Assembly: GCA_013204595.1 (NCBI GenBank)
Contig: JABMNK010000118.1
Coordinates: 1-64,000, forward strand
DNA length: 64,000 nucleotides
Direction: 5' to 3'
Source: Flammeovirgaceae bacterium
Lineage (GTDB): Bacteria > Bacteroidota > Bacteroidia > Cytophagales > Cyclobacteriaceae
The notes under the pieces were generated by a model. It saw only the letters and a list, made by a program, of their open reading frames with translations, had not been told where the DNA came from and did not search any database. The translations under genes were made by a program, and so were the position numbers. This document shows, piece after piece, positions 56,056 to 62,247 of the stretch. Position 1 is the first letter of the stretch; the number at the start of each line of letters is the position of its first letter.

Positions 56056-56078
56056 TTATTTAGAATGATTCTAAATAA
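56056..56078. promoter_or_regulatory. Palindromic operator (Fur-superfamily geometry), regulator-feo operon
   Basis: A perfect 23-base palindrome centred on G56067, with core TTTAGAATGATTCTAAA (56059-56075). It ends at the A of the regulator's ATG. The 7-1-7 symmetry (TTAGAAT-N-ATTCTAA) is the pattern known for Fur, PerR and Zur sites. An almost identical site lies at 62225-62247. It would repress feo genes when metal is plentiful. Which member of the family binds is unknown; no fur gene is in the window. Confidence 0.7.
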
Positions 56079-56716
56079 TGAGCGCCATTAAAGTATTACT
56101 TTCTGATTTTCAGTTTTTAACTAGACGAGGACTCATCGCATTGATAGAACAATCAACCGAATTTGAACTAATAGGGGTGATTGAAGATATTTCACAGTTC
56201 TCAAAAAAAAGGCAGCTCCCTGGGCCGGAAGTATTGGTGATGGATTTGGCAGGTCAAAATCAGGAGGTTTTAGATCAATTGAACGCGTATATTGAACATC
56301 AAGAAGCAAACGTGTTGATCATTACCAATGATTATGATAGGGAGTATCTTCAGCAATTATTGGCGATGGGAGTAAAAGGTATTATCACCAAGAGATGTAA
56401 TGAGAAGGAAATCGTACATGCCATTGAATCAGTGGCCCAAGCCAATCGTTTTTTTTGCAATACTATTTTGGATAAGTTGATGATTACCCATCAAGAAGCC
56501 GATCAAAGCTGTGAACCAACCACCTTAACGAAGCGTGAATTTGAGGTATTGGAGCTCATTGCCAAGGGGTATCGTACATCAGATATGGCTGAGCTATTAT
56601 TTGTCAGTATTCATACGATCAACTCTCACCGAAAGAACATTCTTAAAAAATTGAATTTAAAGTCACCAGCGCAACTAATCCTCTATGCGATCGAAACTAA
56701 ATTGGTCAAATTGTGA
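56078..56716 (+). CDS. NarL/LuxR-type response regulator upstream of feoAB
   Basis: A 212-residue protein: receiver domain (1-~120) and LuxR HTH (~145-212, LTKREFEVLELIAKGYRTSD, then SIHTINSHRKNILKKLNLKS). The receiver keeps Asp56 (phospho-site), Thr83 and Lys105, but the first acidic pair is Ser9-Asp10 instead of Asp-Asp. No partner histidine kinase is adjacent. The ATG overlaps the operator by one base, so its own synthesis is controlled by that site. It precedes feoA by 78 bases, and may be an iron-responsive regulator of the region, though this is inference from location. Confidence 0.88.
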   Translation: MSAIKVLLSDFQFLTRRGLIALIEQSTEFELIGVIEDISQFSKKRQLPGPEVLVMDLAGQNQEVLDQLNAYIEHQEANVLIITNDYDREYLQQLLAMGVKGIITKRCNEKEIVHAIESVAQANRFFCNTILDKLMITHQEADQSCEPTTLTKREFEVLELIAKGYRTSDMAELLFVSIHTINSHRKNILKKLNLKSPAQLILYAIETKLVKL

Positions 56717-56794
56717 ATGTTTAATAATTAATTATTGTTTCGGTATGCTACTATTTTTAAATGCCTTTAAGTTTGCGCTTCAAAATTTTGTCCA

Positions 56795-57016
56795 CTGACA
56801 ACATTAGATCAAATATCGAATTTTACTCTGGCTTATATCATTAAGGATATTAAGGAAGACCTGCTTGCGTCTAAGTTGGTCGATATGGGATTATTTCCGG
56901 GTAAAGAAATCAGGGTGCTTTTTAAGGCCCCTTTTGGAGATCCAATTGCCATAGACGTGCACGGTTATACTTTAGCGCTTCGAAAGAACGAAGCTGCCTT
57001 AATTGAATTAGAATGA
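56795..57016 (+). CDS. feoA: Ferrous iron transport protein A
   Basis: A 73-residue FeoA with an SH3-like fold. The protein reads TTLDQISNF, then LVDMGLFPGKEIRVLFKAPF and GDPIAIDVHGYTLALRKNEA, clear FeoA text. No ATG, GTG or TTG is available between the upstream in-frame stop (56768-56770) and this text. CTG at 56795 would give M-TTLDQI, which fits the usual N-terminus, so a CTG start is proposed. The stop overlaps the feoB ATG by four bases (ATGA). It acts with FeoB at the inner membrane. Confidence 0.85.
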   Translation: MTTLDQISNFTLAYIIKDIKEDLLASKLVDMGLFPGKEIRVLFKAPFGDPIAIDVHGYTLALRKNEAALIELE

Positions 57017-58968
57017 AAGCAGTACTCATTGGCAATCCCAATTCAGGAAAAAGCTCTGTTTTTAATTTACTCACAGGCCTCAATCAGAAGGTAGGTAATT
57101 ATCCCGGCATTACGGTTGACAAGAAGACGGGATCTTTTACCCATAAAGGCAAAATCATTGAATTATTAGATCTTCCGGGGATTTATAGTATTTATCCAAA
57201 ATCACAAGATGAAGAAATTGTCTATCAGGTACTGAGTCAAAAAGCGCATGAAGACCATCCTGATTTAGCCATTGTGGTCATGGATGCCACCAATATTGAA
57301 CGTAATTTATTTTTGGCCACTCAAATTTTGGATTTGGGGATACCTACCTTATTTCTGGCAAACATGGTAGATGTAGTCGAAAAGGAGAACATTCTTCAAT
57401 TGAACTACACTAAGCTTAGTGAATTACTAGGGGGGGTAACCATTCTCCCTTTTAGCGCAAGATTGGGAAAGGGCTTGGAAGACTTAAAGGAAGCAATTAG
57501 TAATTTCTCTCCAGACTTAGCCTTGATCCCAGTCATTCCAGATGAATTTTCTGGTGTGACTGATTGGAATAAAAGTGCCAATGATCAGGTCGCTTTTGGT
57601 CAAGCCAGATACAAAAAAATCGGACAAATTTTAAGTTTTTGTTTGCAAAAGCAAGCGCAAAAGGACACGCGTCACAGCAAGTTTGATCGGATTGTGACCC
57701 ATCGATTTTGGGGCTATGTGATATTTTTGTCCATTTTAGCCTTTATTTTTCAGACTATTTTTGCTTGGTCAGAGTGGCCAATGCATCTGATTGATACCGT
57801 GTTTTTGTCATTGAGTCAATGGACCAAAGAATTTTTGCCTGCGGGTCCGGTGACCAATCTGATTGCCGAAGGAGTCATTCCTGGACTAGGGGGTGTCATG
57901 ATTTTTATCCCTCAAATCGCCTTGCTTTTTGGGTTTATCTTTTTTCTTGAGGAAACGGGATATATGGCCCGAGTGGTCTTTATTACAGACCGACTCATGC
58001 GACCTTTGGGATTAAATGGAAGAAGCATTGTGCCCTTGATCTCCGGTGTAGCGTGTGCCATACCTGCCGTGATGGCTACACGAACCATTGATAACTGGAA
58101 AGAAAGGATTATTACCATTATGGTCACGCCCTTAATGAGCTGCTCTGCGCGCTTGCCGGTATATACATTGCTAATCGCTTTGGTCGTACCAGACGTCCAA
58201 ATGGGATTTTTTAATCTGAAAGGCCTAGTGCTTATGGCGCTCTACTTAGTGGGCTTTATTGCAGCATTATTGTCTGCTGTAGTGTTTAAATTCATTTTGA
58301 AAAACAGTGAAAAGAGTTTTTTGGTAATGGAACTTCCCAACTATAAGACACCTAGGTGGTCAAATTTGTGGATTACTATGGTGGAAAAAATCAAAATTTT
58401 TGTTTGGGAGGCGGGCCAGGTTATCATGGCGATTTCTGTGGTATTGTGGGTGCTGGCTAGTTATGGGCCAGGAGATCGAATCGAGCAAGCGGTGGCACAA
58501 ATTCCGGTTGCGGCGGCTGGCGTGTCGGATGAGTTGTATCAAAATAAGGTAAATGCGGTGGCATTAGAGCATTCCTATATTGGCATTGCCGGAAAATGGA
58601 TTGAACCAGCCATCAAGCCGCTTGGTTACAACTGGCAGATAGGCATTTCGCTTATTACCTCTTTTGTAGCAAGAGAAGTGTTTGTGGGCTCTATGGCGAC
58701 CATTTATAGTGTCGGAGAAAACTTCGAATCGGGTAATACGCTACTTGAGCGTATGTCGGCGCAAAGGGATCCTCAAGGTCAGCCCGTTTATACGTTGGCA
58801 TCAGGTTTTTCCTTGATGTTGTTTTATGCCTTCGCAATGCAATGCATGAGTACGTTAGCGGTGGTGCGCCGGGAAACCAAAAGTTGGAAATGGCCAATTA
58901 TTCAACTCGTTTATATGACATCTTTGGCCTATATTAGTGCCTTAATTGCCTTTAACCTATTAAATTGA
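57013..58968 (+). CDS. feoB: Ferrous iron transport protein B
   Basis: A 651-residue inner-membrane Fe2+ transporter. The N-terminal G domain has GNPNSGKSS (G1, ~7-15), GNYPGITVDKKTG (switch), DLPG (G3), NMVD (G4) and FSARLG (G5). The membrane core carries GVACAIPAVMATRTIDNWKE and MSCSARLPVYTLLIALVVPD, with the usual gate residues, and SFVAREVFVGSMATIYSVGE near the end. It is shorter than E. coli FeoB. It is coupled to feoA by ATGA overlap and to the next microprotein by a TGATG overlap. Confidence 0.97.
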   Translation: MKAVLIGNPNSGKSSVFNLLTGLNQKVGNYPGITVDKKTGSFTHKGKIIELLDLPGIYSIYPKSQDEEIVYQVLSQKAHEDHPDLAIVVMDATNIERNLFLATQILDLGIPTLFLANMVDVVEKENILQLNYTKLSELLGGVTILPFSARLGKGLEDLKEAISNFSPDLALIPVIPDEFSGVTDWNKSANDQVAFGQARYKKIGQILSFCLQKQAQKDTRHSKFDRIVTHRFWGYVIFLSILAFIFQTIFAWSEWPMHLIDTVFLSLSQWTKEFLPAGPVTNLIAEGVIPGLGGVMIFIPQIALLFGFIFFLEETGYMARVVFITDRLMRPLGLNGRSIVPLISGVACAIPAVMATRTIDNWKERIITIMVTPLMSCSARLPVYTLLIALVVPDVQMGFFNLKGLVLMALYLVGFIAALLSAVVFKFILKNSEKSFLVMELPNYKTPRWSNLWITMVEKIKIFVWEAGQVIMAISVVLWVLASYGPGDRIEQAVAQIPVAAAGVSDELYQNKVNAVALEHSYIGIAGKWIEPAIKPLGYNWQIGISLITSFVAREVFVGSMATIYSVGENFESGNTLLERMSAQRDPQGQPVYTLASGFSLMLFYAFAMQCMSTLAVVRRETKSWKWPIIQLVYMTSLAYISALIAFNLLN

Positions 58969-59348: not shown

Positions 59349-59879
59349 ATGAAACAGCATTCAAGAAGGCATCAGGTACTGAAGCAAGAGATTATAGACA
59401 TCATTAACAAGCAAATACAAATGGAGGCCCATTCTTCCGCAGGTTATCTAGCTATGGCGGGTTGGTGCGATGTAGCGGGTTATGACAATTGTGCGGAATT
59501 CTTTTTTAAGCAGTCCGAAGAAGAGCGCAAACATCAGCTCAAATTATTTCACTATTTGGTAGATATGGAGGCCAAAGCCATTTCACCAGCCATTGGAGAT
59601 TCCAACCATGCGTTTGATAAACTTAGGACTGTTTTCGAGCATGCCCTTGACATGGAAATAGGCGTCTCAGATGCCATTCATGCAGTGGTGAGGTCTTGTA
59701 GAGAACATGGGGATATTGCCACAGAAGAGTTTATGAGGTGGTTTGTACAAGAGCAAATCGAAGAAGAATATGTAGCCCGCCGAGCCTTGGAGTTATTTGA
59801 CGTACTTGGAGAAGACAAAATCGCTCTTGGTATGATCGAGGAAAGGATTCTAGGGGTAGCCTATGATGGGGGAGTCTAG
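59349..59879 (+). CDS. Ferritin
   Basis: A 176-residue ferritin (four-helix bundle). QIQMEAHSSAGYLAMAGWCD is helix A with the ferroxidase Glu, FFFKQSEEERKHQLKLFHYL holds Glu/Glu-His of helix B, and EEFMRWFVQEQIEEEYVARR the helix-D Glu pair. It oxidises Fe2+ and stores Fe3+ as a mineral in the cytoplasm. It is downstream of the feo operon by 234 bases, with its own region. I do not see the palindromic operator in front of it. Bacterioferritin is excluded as no haem-binding Met is apparent in the usual place. Confidence 0.93.
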   Translation: MKQHSRRHQVLKQEIIDIINKQIQMEAHSSAGYLAMAGWCDVAGYDNCAEFFFKQSEEERKHQLKLFHYLVDMEAKAISPAIGDSNHAFDKLRTVFEHALDMEIGVSDAIHAVVRSCREHGDIATEEFMRWFVQEQIEEEYVARRALELFDVLGEDKIALGMIEERILGVAYDGGV

Positions 59880-59915: not shown

Positions 59916-60428
59916 TCAGCTTTGCTCATTGCTTGGCCTATCCTCAGGCTTCACACAATAATAAATGATGAGCAGGGCAGATGTCAGAAAACTCACGGTG
60001 AGTAGGATGCCCGAGATCATGGCCAAATAGTGCACATAAGGGAGCTCTTTCCAAATTAAATAAATACTACCGAAGGTGATGACGATCGAAAAGAAGGGCT
60101 CGTAAAGCAGCCATTTTTTGAGTATTGGAGCTATCGGCAAAGTTAAGATTAGGATGCCCAAGGCAAAAAATATGAGGGCAAATGAAATGACATGCGTATG
60201 AATGATCACGAGAATTTCTTTTTCAGGCTTTTTGAATTTCATCAAATCGGCTGATGGATTGTGTTCATTTCCCATGTAATTTTCAACGATACCCGTCGCG
60301 CTGAGGGCGGTAGTCTCATAAATCAAATCAAATCCGGTGAAATAGCCTGTCGCAAGACAAAGTACGAAAAGTACGATGAATCTTTTGATCAGTATAGGGA
60401 AGTCTTCAATAGCATTAAGGAAAGTCAT
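59916..60428 (-). CDS. Four-helix membrane protein with helix histidines, unknown
   Basis: A 170-residue protein with hydrophobic segments at about 13-34, 72-97, 109-126 and 131-157. His77 and His79 start the second helix (IIHTHVISFALIFFALG) and His133 lies in the fourth (YVHYLAMISG). The loop between helices 1 and 2 holds ENYMGNEHNPSADLMKFKKP. Such in-helix His pairs can ligate haem or face quinone, but no cytochrome family is recognised. The start overlaps the FMN-binding gene stop by four bases (ATGA). It is the last gene of the porin/FMN operon, a likely electron-delivery partner of the flavoprotein. Confidence 0.75.
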   Translation of the reverse strand: MTFLNAIEDFPILIKRFIVLFVLCLATGYFTGFDLIYETTALSATGIVENYMGNEHNPSADLMKFKKPEKEILVIIHTHVISFALIFFALGILILTLPIAPILKKWLLYEPFFSIVITFGSIYLIWKELPYVHYLAMISGILLTVSFLTSALLIIYYCVKPEDRPSNEQS

Positions 60429-60991
60429 GGTGTGTTAGGATGCGTGTGTTGGATCCCTTGAATAAGGGCAGTAAGTTTATGAATTTCTTGCGTTGCGGAT
60501 CGAACGGAGATTGTCGCACCGCTTATGCCTTGAATGTCTTGGCTCACCTCAATGGGATCCTTGAACGTTTTGTCCATAAATTGTTTCAACCATCTCTCAC
60601 TCATGATTTCACCTCCGTAGTCTTCACGGTAAGTCAAAATTTGAGTTTGCTTGATCCGCAAGGCGGTGTCGTAGCGTACCAGTAGTTCAAAGTGGTTGTG
60701 CCGACTAGGGGCACTACTGATGGCCAGGTATCCAAGGATGTTCTCTCCTTTTTTGAGTCGATAAAAAGTTTCGTTGCCCGTAAGGACCACGCCTTCTGGT
60801 AACTTTGAGAGATTTGGCATCCAAGGTTCTTTCACGGCCTCTTTCATCCCATTTTTTTCTAAGCCTTTGTCTACCTTTTTCCAAAGGCTATCGGGCCAGA
60901 TGACTGGCGCGAAGGTCCAACTTGAGAGCAACAAAAGGGAGAGGCCTAGGGTGACCCACACTTTTTTTAGGTATTTAAAATAGTATTGCAT
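60425..60991 (-). CDS. Membrane-anchored FMN-binding domain protein
   Basis: 188 residues from ATG 60991 (another ATG at 61006 would overlap the porin stop). A hydrophobic segment (~9-30) anchors it, and the rest is extracytoplasmic. Near the end, DIQGISGATISVRSA (SGAT, ~157-160) fits the covalent FMN-attachment motif of FMN_bind domains, where ApbE links FMN to the Thr (Thr160). YREDYGGEIMSERW is the upstream family block. These domains pass electrons outside the cytoplasm, as in RnfG/NqrC and extracellular electron-transfer modules. The gene lies 5 bases after the porin-like gene and overlaps the next gene. Confidence 0.85.
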   Translation of the reverse strand: MQYYFKYLKKVWVTLGLSLLLLSSWTFAPVIWPDSLWKKVDKGLEKNGMKEAVKEPWMPNLSKLPEGVVLTGNETFYRLKKGENILGYLAISSAPSRHNHFELLVRYDTALRIKQTQILTYREDYGGEIMSERWLKQFMDKTFKDPIEVSQDIQGISGATISVRSATQEIHKLTALIQGIQHTHPNTP

Positions 60992-60996
60992 GTCCG

Positions 60997-62208
60997 TTAA
61001 AACCATATCCCGAGGCCCGTATTGATTTGATGTTGATCCATGTTGTTTTGATCGGCATTTTGAAACCGTTGGTAATCTAGTTTGATCACCGCCCCATATG
61101 CGATATGATAAGAAAACCCTGTGGTAATATCGGTGCGGTCAAATGCGGCATTTGTCATGCCTTCTCCAAGCATGACCTTATGGGTGTTGTATTTTTCATA
61201 GCGCGAAAATAAGACCAAGCGTTGCTTGCTTTTAAGCTCAAAAGGACGCAATAGGTCATATCCAACCTCTAAATAATAGCCAAATAATTGGGCGCCAAGA
61301 TCGCGACCGGTGAGTCCGTTGTATTGATCCGTATTATTCAATTGGGCGTTGACCAATTGTCCACGGGCTTGGAAACCACCTTTTTGATAGCGGGCATCCA
61401 ATCCAACCATCGAAATACCAACGACGGAAGAATCGGCGTGTGCGCGTAGGAGGGAATTGTTTTTGTCTAGCTGCTCAAAGAGGGTCGACTGAGATTTGCC
61501 GAAATAGCCGGCAAGGCCGATTTTTAAACCTAGGACACCAAAGTGATCAATTTTGGCCGAGAAATTGGGACTACTCATATATGATTCAGCGCCTTTTTGG
61601 CGCCCTGCCCGTAAGGCGTCATTGCCGCGGAGCATACCGACCCCTTGGTCATAGCCATTAAATCCATTGAAAAGATAGGCTTGGTATCGCAAGGAGGCCG
61701 CAGGTAAGGTCCCCGTCACCCCCAGGCCAAGTTCTCTCCACGTGGAGGGAATGATTTTGCCGTCTAGATTGGGTCTTTCGACACCATTATAAGTGGTGGG
61801 CTCATGGTATTCGTTGATAATACCCATGGGCACCAGCATTAAGCCCCCTCTGAAACTCAAGGCATTATTGATTCGGTGATTAATGAAAGCTTGCTCCACA
61901 TAAACTTCTTTTATATGCTCGAATTCAATTTCAGTGACAAAGTGAGTGTTTTGGCTAAACTGATAGCCCATAAAAAGCACCAATCTATGAACATCCAAGT
62001 TGCCAGTTCGATGGACGTCCTTGGCAAAAGGTTGGTTATAATCCATTTCAGCATAGGCCCCGAGGGTGATGTTTTTGGAACTATTGCCTGCAATGATGTT
62101 ACTAGCAGAGTTCAAGGGCTGGTTGGTCAACGTATCGACATTGTTTACCTGTGCCTGTAGGGTGAGTCCCCAACAGCAAGAAATGATCAAGAGCCAAGAT
62201 GCTTTCAT
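60997..62208 (-). CDS. Phosphate-selective-porin-like outer-membrane protein
   Basis: A 403-residue barrel with signal peptide (MKASWLLIISCCWGLTLQAQ). LGAYAEMDYNQPFAKDVHRT, LFMGYQFSQNTHFVTEIEFE, RGGLMLVPMGIINEYHEPTT and RELGLGVTGTLPAASLRYQA fit the OprO/OprP-like (porin O/P) family, and the C-terminus ends in Phe. Although named for phosphate, such porins in Bacteroidota take other solutes; here the iron-type operator and the FMN partner suggest an iron or other redox substrate. It is the first gene of the operon, 16 bases from the palindrome. Confidence 0.82.
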   Translation of the reverse strand: MKASWLLIISCCWGLTLQAQVNNVDTLTNQPLNSASNIIAGNSSKNITLGAYAEMDYNQPFAKDVHRTGNLDVHRLVLFMGYQFSQNTHFVTEIEFEHIKEVYVEQAFINHRINNALSFRGGLMLVPMGIINEYHEPTTYNGVERPNLDGKIIPSTWRELGLGVTGTLPAASLRYQAYLFNGFNGYDQGVGMLRGNDALRAGRQKGAESYMSSPNFSAKIDHFGVLGLKIGLAGYFGKSQSTLFEQLDKNNSLLRAHADSSVVGISMVGLDARYQKGGFQARGQLVNAQLNNTDQYNGLTGRDLGAQLFGYYLEVGYDLLRPFELKSKQRLVLFSRYEKYNTHKVMLGEGMTNAAFDRTDITTGFSYHIAYGAVIKLDYQRFQNADQNNMDQHQINTGLGIWF

Positions 62209-62224
62209 ATACCGAGAATGTTAA

Positions 62225-62247
62225 TTATTTAGAATGATTCTAAACAA
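62225..62247. promoter_or_regulatory. Palindromic operator (Fur-superfamily geometry), porin/FMN operon
   Basis: The same 23-base palindrome as at 56056-56078, differing at one base; the 17-base core TTTAGAATGATTCTAAA (62228-62244) is identical. It lies between the proposed promoter and the porin ATG (16 bases before it). Two such matching sites 6 kb apart strongly suggest one regulator. Confidence 0.7.

What the first reader, a model, noticed from the sequence alone, without database searches (positions are those of the whole stretch)
59916..62247. Operon of porin, FMN-binding protein and His-rich four-helix membrane protein: candidate new extracytoplasmic redox/iron system
Three genes lie within five bases of each other: an OprO/P-like porin, a membrane-anchored FMN-binding domain with an SGAT motif for covalent FMN, and an unrecognised four-helix protein with His77/His79 and His133 in helices. 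The operator is shared with feoAB, and ferritin lies next to it. ApbE-flavinylated domains are known electron carriers outside the cytoplasm (Rnf, Nqr, extracellular electron transfer). I infer that the membrane protein passes electrons from quinol or haem to the flavoprotein, which reduces Fe(III) entering by the porin, and FeoB imports the Fe2+.
Basis: inference. Interest (0 to 1): 0.75.

Follow-up and report, generated by a model that had tools for sequence, protein, structure and literature searches.

The report
Fur-controlled porin–flavoprotein–membrane iron operon
Three tightly linked genes, kept together in about forty diverse Bacteroidota and usually preceded by an iron-regulator binding site, probably form an undescribed cell-envelope system that reduces ferric iron outside the cytoplasm so that it can be imported as ferrous iron.

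Summary
Porin (60997-62208), FMN_bind protein (60425-61006) and a 170-aa four-helix (4TM) protein (59916-60428) overlap on the minus strand. The 4TM protein matches no Pfam, NCBIfam or PDB family, yet occurs in 40 of 395 sampled Bacteroidota genomes, and 37 of 40 loci read carry porin-FMN-4TM in that order. In 41 sequences His77, His79 and the GAT of the flavinylation motif are invariant; His133 is not conserved. apbE adjoins the operon in 17 of 40 loci and is present in every other 4TM genome tested. One genome without the 4TM gene also lacks apbE and has a degraded motif. The operator matches the Fur box of Riemerella (18/19 and 17/19) and recurs before the porin in 25 of 38 loci. In Proteobacteria, and once in Bacteroidota, a four-His DUF4405-like protein fills the 4TM slot. 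Sister species have feoAB-ferritin-spoU without the operon, so it was probably inserted. Best reading: a Fur-controlled, flavin-based periplasmic ferric reductase feeding FeoB, with the HxH protein as membrane electron donor. The donor role, its cofactor, the ferric substrate and porin selectivity are inferred. New variant of a known kind.

The parts
62227..62245 (.). Fur-type operator of the porin operon (ATTTAGAATGATTCTAAAC)
   Evidence: 17/19 to the Riemerella Fur box; class conserved in 25 of 38 orthologous promoters
60997..62208 (-). Outer-membrane beta-barrel porin, OprO/P superfamily, with conserved acidic strand E93/E95/E97, H98, E101, E105 and H135
   Evidence: ORF; family alignment; Pfam for family members
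60425..61006 (-). Exported FMN_bind protein, predicted ApbE substrate
   Evidence: PF04205 over cut-off; all 22 members of the alignment match PF04205
60512..60523 (-). Flavinylation motif SGAT; FMN would be on the Thr encoded at 60512-60514
   Evidence: sequence; G-A-T invariant in 41 sequences
59916..60428 (-). Undescribed four-helix membrane protein, proposed electron donor to the FMN protein
   Evidence: ORF; no family; N-in topology by charge
60192..60200 (-). Invariant HxH motif (His77, His79) at the predicted periplasmic start of TM2
   Evidence: invariant in 41 sequences
56058..56076 (.). Second Fur-type operator (ATTTAGAATGATTCTAAAT), in front of response regulator-feoA-feoB and beside fumC
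   Evidence: 18/19 to the Riemerella Fur box; kept in sister species
57013..58968 (+). feoB, proposed importer of the Fe2+ produced (functional partner, not part of the operon)
   Evidence: Pfam
59349..59879 (+). ferritin, convergent neighbour; older than the inserted operon
   Evidence: Pfam; sister synteny

Best explanation
The operon encodes a Fur-controlled, flavin-based extracytoplasmic ferric reductase module that works with FeoB. Shown by sequence: a conserved three-gene unit, an exported protein with a flavinylation motif, an undescribed 4TM protein with an invariant HxH on the predicted periplasmic side, a porin with a conserved acidic strand, and a Fur-type operator. Inferred: when iron is low, Fur leaves the operator; the 4TM protein draws electrons at the periplasmic face of the inner membrane, most likely from quinol through a haem or metal held by the HxH, perhaps across a dimer, and reduces the covalently flavinylated periplasmic carrier; the carrier reduces Fe(III) that entered through the porin; FeoB imports the Fe2+. 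The 4TM protein occupies the place held by a four-His DUF4405-like protein in the Proteobacterial version of the operon.
For: Operon conserved in 37 of 40 loci, FMN/4TM genes typically overlapping by 4 bp, correlated divergence of the three proteins. HxH and GAT invariant. apbE beside the operon in 17 of 40 loci and present in every 4TM genome tested. G124 has no 4TM gene, no apbE, and TGST in place of SGAT. Slot replacement by a DUF4405-like protein, a class known to bind haem b and to cluster with apbE (PMC11334425). Fur-type box conserved in promoters and equal to a Bacteroidota box tested by EMSA (PMC5609570). Same operator before feoAB, hemA, sufS and a ferredoxin gene. FeoB in three other loci, ferritin in one. 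Porin relatives sit with imelysin and di-heme oxidoreductase genes, which are iron-linked (PMC3143127). Flavinylation-iron transporter links are known elsewhere (PMC8238504).
Against: No haem, quinone or ferric-reductase evidence. Only two invariant His, two residues apart in one helix, unlike the four-His di-haem pattern; 9 of 41 sequences have no other His. No detectable homology to DUF4405-like proteins. FeoB is not usually adjacent. The genome's single apbE must also serve Nqr. Structure models were too poor to use. Some exact operator copies elsewhere precede genes with no obvious iron role.
Confidence: 0.55

Rival explanations
1. The module is a flavin electron chain made under low iron that reduces something other than iron (a small organic acceptor, thiols or free flavin), standing in for iron-rich cytochromes as an iron-sparing response.
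For: The same operator precedes multihaem cytochrome (Act-like) operons, hemA and napA-like genes, so the regulon includes respiration, not only uptake. Flavin chains are proposed to be advantageous in iron-poor settings (PMC8238504).
Against: No catalytic reductase gene is shared by the loci. A dedicated porin, and FeoB or ferritin neighbours in several loci, fit metal handling better.
Confidence: 0.2
2. The 4TM protein is not an electron donor but a metal-binding, docking or assembly protein; the FMN protein gets its electrons from Nqr or another chain.
For: The HxH could simply bind a metal; there is no four-His haem pattern; Nqr is present in the window genome.
Against: Its gene overlaps the FMN gene nearly everywhere, a DUF4405-like protein takes the same slot elsewhere, and it is missing in the genome that has lost apbE.
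Confidence: 0.25
3. The substrate is another metal, such as copper, rather than iron.
For: A PCuAC copper-chaperone gene follows the operon in four loci of one genus; multicopper oxidase genes lie beside the Methylocystis plasmid operon. The conserved residues are not metal-specific.
Against: Fur-type operator across the phylum and Feo/ferritin neighbours; copper genes occur in one genus only.
Confidence: 0.08

Closest known systems
DUF4405 / FezC flavinylation-associated cytochromes (PMC11334425), and the porin-FMN_bind-ApbE-DUF4405-like operon seen here on Proteobacterial plasmids
   Same: Exported FMN_bind protein with SGAT, apbE in the cluster, small polytopic membrane partner with conserved His, a related porin in three of the four plasmid operons
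   Different: The membrane partner here has HxH only instead of four spaced His, and shows no detectable homology
PepSY-like and MsrQ-like flavin iron-assimilation systems (PMC8238504), including V. cholerae VciB
   Same: Flavin or haem redox outside the cytosol linked to Fe import, and in some cases Fur control
   Different: No PepSY, MsrQ, DUF2271 or VIT1; dedicated porin; undescribed 4TM partner
NqrC / RnfG
   Same: FMN_bind fold and SGAT motif, ApbE dependence; distant similarity to RnfG models
   Different: Not in an Nqr/Rnf operon and no NqrB/RnfD partner; a separate Nqr is in the genome
Imelysin / di-heme oxidoreductase / porin loci of Bacteroidales (EfeUOB-like parts; PMC3143127)
   Same: A related porin beside iron-linked periplasmic redox proteins
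   Different: Haem peroxidase and imelysin in place of the flavoprotein and 4TM protein

Membership tests
ApbE-flavinylated extracytosolic electron-transfer systems | FMN_bind domain with [S/T]GA[S/T] motif | tested here: met
   PF04205 over cut-off; SGAT; GAT invariant in 41 sequences
ApbE-flavinylated extracytosolic electron-transfer systems | apbE in the genome | tested here: met
   adjacent in 17 of 40 other loci, unlinked in the window genome
ApbE-flavinylated extracytosolic electron-transfer systems | covalent FMN on the protein | not testable with these tools
   needs protein chemistry
DUF4405-like cytochromes | four conserved His in the transmembrane helices | tested here: not met
   only H77 and H79 conserved
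DUF4405-like cytochromes | sequence homology | tested here: not met
   hhalign probability 0.1% against the plasmid DUF4405-like proteins; 0 of 30 members hit any Pfam model
[quoted passage not shown]
   no Pfam match for any of 30 members
FezC-type cytochromes | haem sites formed across a homodimer | tested here: inconclusive
   two conserved His per chain would allow it; the structure model was too poor
Porin O/P superfamily | Pfam PF07396 match | tested here: inconclusive
   8 of 24 relatives match, the window protein does not
Fur regulon | Fur box in the promoter and fur gene in the genome | tested here: met
   17/19 match; conserved in 25 of 38 promoters; two Fur-family genes
Fur regulon | iron- and fur-dependent expression | not testable with these tools
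   needs expression data; DtxR-family genes are also present

The most novel reading that the evidence does not exclude
The HxH 4TM family is a new class of inner-membrane quinol-to-flavin electron donor, unrelated to PepSY, MsrQ, DUF4405, DsbD or Nqr/Rnf, which with a dedicated cation porin makes a complete outer-to-inner-membrane ferric reduction and uptake route into FeoB.
Probability: 0.45. Interest if true: 0.75.

Novelty: new variant of a known kind. Interest (0 to 1): 0.62.

Why it matters
FeoB takes up Fe2+, yet in oxygenated settings bacteria meet Fe(III). The periplasmic reductase that bridges this gap is unidentified in many bacteria; a study of a FeoB-dependent sphingomonad states that no periplasmic reductase like vciB was found in its genome (PMC7376174). 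This operon is a concrete, phylum-wide, testable candidate for that step in Bacteroidota, and its Proteobacterial form suggests that one porin-flavoprotein core is fed by interchangeable membrane donors.

Tried and rejected
AlphaFold2 for the 4TM protein and the porin with two-sequence alignments gave mean pLDDT 59.6 and 35.7, so no fold search was run. PDB sequence searches with family profiles found nothing credible. Plasmid and viral searches for the 4TM protein were empty. Laying the whole genome in Python, and centring a genome search on a Proteobacterium, were not possible, so Proteobacterial chromosomes were not surveyed. Rejected: homology of the 4TM protein to SpoIIM, CrcB or DUF998 (below cut-offs); His133 as a functional residue; the ferritin neighbour as a co-inherited part (sister species have it without the operon; the L047 ferritin is only 35% identical). 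The weaker FMN profile hits in other genomes were Rnf-operon subunits in the five such loci examined.

Full report
Observation. The three ORFs are present and overlapping. FMN_bind passes Pfam's cut-off, the 4TM protein has no family, and the neighbours are FeoB, ferritin, a LuxR-type response regulator and a SpoU methylase. The genome carries one apbE, an Nqr operon with its own FMN_bind subunit (Nqr named from the sequence), two Fur-family and two DtxR-family genes.

Conservation. A first search found one relative of the 4TM protein, in a groundwater Bacteroidetes genome, inside an identical porin-FMN-4TM operon. A two-sequence profile then found it in 40 of 395 sampled Bacteroidota genomes, the window's own included (45 genomes passed E <= 0.01; the five weakest are partial matches that I do not count). 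Of 40 loci read in full (39 of these plus the groundwater one), 37 carry the three genes in the order porin-FMN-4TM on one strand. The exceptions are L047 (DUF6607 in the porin's place) and the diverged L079 and L080, where the order differs. The FMN/4TM junction is typically a 4-bp overlap, and the pairwise distances of the three proteins are correlated (Spearman 0.68-0.77, no Mantel permutation of 200 as high). H77, H79 and G53 of the 4TM protein and GAT of the FMN protein are invariant in 41 sequences; His133 is not conserved. Charge distribution predicts N-in topology, with the acidic first loop and the HxH at the periplasmic side. Thirty 4TM members match no Pfam or NCBIfam model.

Flavinylation link. 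ApbE is encoded next to the operon in 17 of 40 loci. The 4TM-bearing genomes without adjacent apbE that were tested all have it elsewhere. The informative exception is G124: it keeps porin and FMN genes, has no 4TM gene, is the only one of 29 genomes tested without apbE, and its motif reads TGST instead of SGAT. It is a single case, but it is what decay of a flavin chain should look like.

Slot replacement. On Proteobacterial plasmids the FMN relative lies in an operon of outer-membrane protein, FMN_bind, ApbE and a ~145-aa membrane protein. The outer-membrane protein is a relative of the window porin in three of the four; the Sphingomonas one is DUF6662. The small protein has four invariant His and weak, sub-threshold similarity to DUF4405 or cytochrome b561 models. 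In one Bacteroidota genome (L161) the order is porin, FMN, DUF4405-like, ApbE, TonB-dependent receptor. DUF4405 proteins bind haem b and cluster with apbE (PMC11334425). The HxH 4TM protein is not detectably homologous to them, so by position it is a different protein in the electron-donor slot. This is the main argument for its role, and it is an inference.

Iron link. The operator TTTAGAATGATTCTAAA is exact at two places in the window. It recurs as TTTAGAnTnnnTCTAAA in the porin promoters of other loci: 32 strand-matched positions with at most one mismatch against 0.12 expected from the rest of the same loci, in 25 of 38 loci. The window copies match at 18 and 17 of 19 positions the Fur box ATTTAGAATTATTCTAAAT derived for Riemerella anatipestifer, where purified Fur bound promoter fragments in EMSA (PMC5609570). 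In other genomes exact copies precede feoA-feoB, a transport permease, hemA (two genomes), sufS, a ferredoxin gene and Act-like multihaem cytochrome operons; other exact copies have no obvious iron link. FeoB is within a few kb of the operon in three other loci and ferritin in one. Porin relatives elsewhere sit with imelysin and di-heme oxidoreductase genes, which are tied to iron uptake (PMC3143127). The porin has a conserved acidic strand E93-x-E95-x-E97 with H98 and an invariant H135, compatible with a cation path; its selectivity is unknown.

History. Five sister genomes of the same genus have feoB-ferritin-spoU-mutS without the operon, and where the contig extends far enough also fumC-RR-feoA in front. 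The Fur box before the RR gene is present in the four sisters where that region was read. None of nine same-genus genomes has the 4TM gene or a porin of this family at the threshold used. The operon was therefore probably inserted between ferritin and spoU, with its own Fur box. The window neighbourhood alone should not be used as evidence of function; repeated associations elsewhere can.

Judgement. The parts, the linkage, the flavinylation motif and the Fur-type box are shown by sequence. That the 4TM protein is an electron donor, that Fe(III) is the acceptor and that the porin carries iron are inferred. It works like the PepSY, MsrQ and DUF4405 flavin systems, but its membrane component fails the membership tests I could run for them; hence a new variant of a known kind. 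I found no description of this gene trio in the two surveys of flavinylation or the ApbE review that I could search; their supplementary tables were not readable here, so an earlier listing there cannot be excluded.

Noticed in passing
L083 around 5800 (G000:C69:14799); also L108, L120: The same exact operator lies 140-230 bp in front of multihaem cytochrome c genes that look like the start of an Alternative Complex III operon, in three genomes, so the presumed Fur regulon includes a respiratory complex.
   Followed up: partly
window 56768-56830: feoA seems to lack an ATG, GTG or TTG start: the frame runs from a stop at 56768 with CTG at 56795 as the nearest plausible start, where sister species have ATG (MTLDQ...).
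   Followed up: partly
window 56078-56716: An orphan LuxR-type response-regulator gene sits between the Fur-type box and feoA-feoB, conserved in sister species; its role is unknown. The same box lies upstream of the divergent fumC.
   Followed up: partly
L104 and L117: In two genomes the operator sits between hemA and a divergent AraC-type regulator gene.
   Followed up: partly
L057, L059, L061, L064: In one genus a PCu(A)C copper-chaperone gene directly follows the 4TM gene.
   Followed up: no
L096 5001-6164: A stand-alone relative of the porin (30% identity over the whole length) on a Candidatus Manganitrophus plasmid, a manganese-oxidiser lineage, with no FMN gene annotated beside it.
   Followed up: no
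L084 around 5460: A one-mismatch copy of the operator (and a weaker second one) precedes small genes that look like a haem-motif protein, a beta-barrel protein, a YceI-like and a Rieske-type protein in the window genome (named by eye).
   Followed up: no
L157 (G124): Natural loss case: porin and FMN genes kept, 4TM gene and apbE absent, motif TGST.
   Followed up: yes
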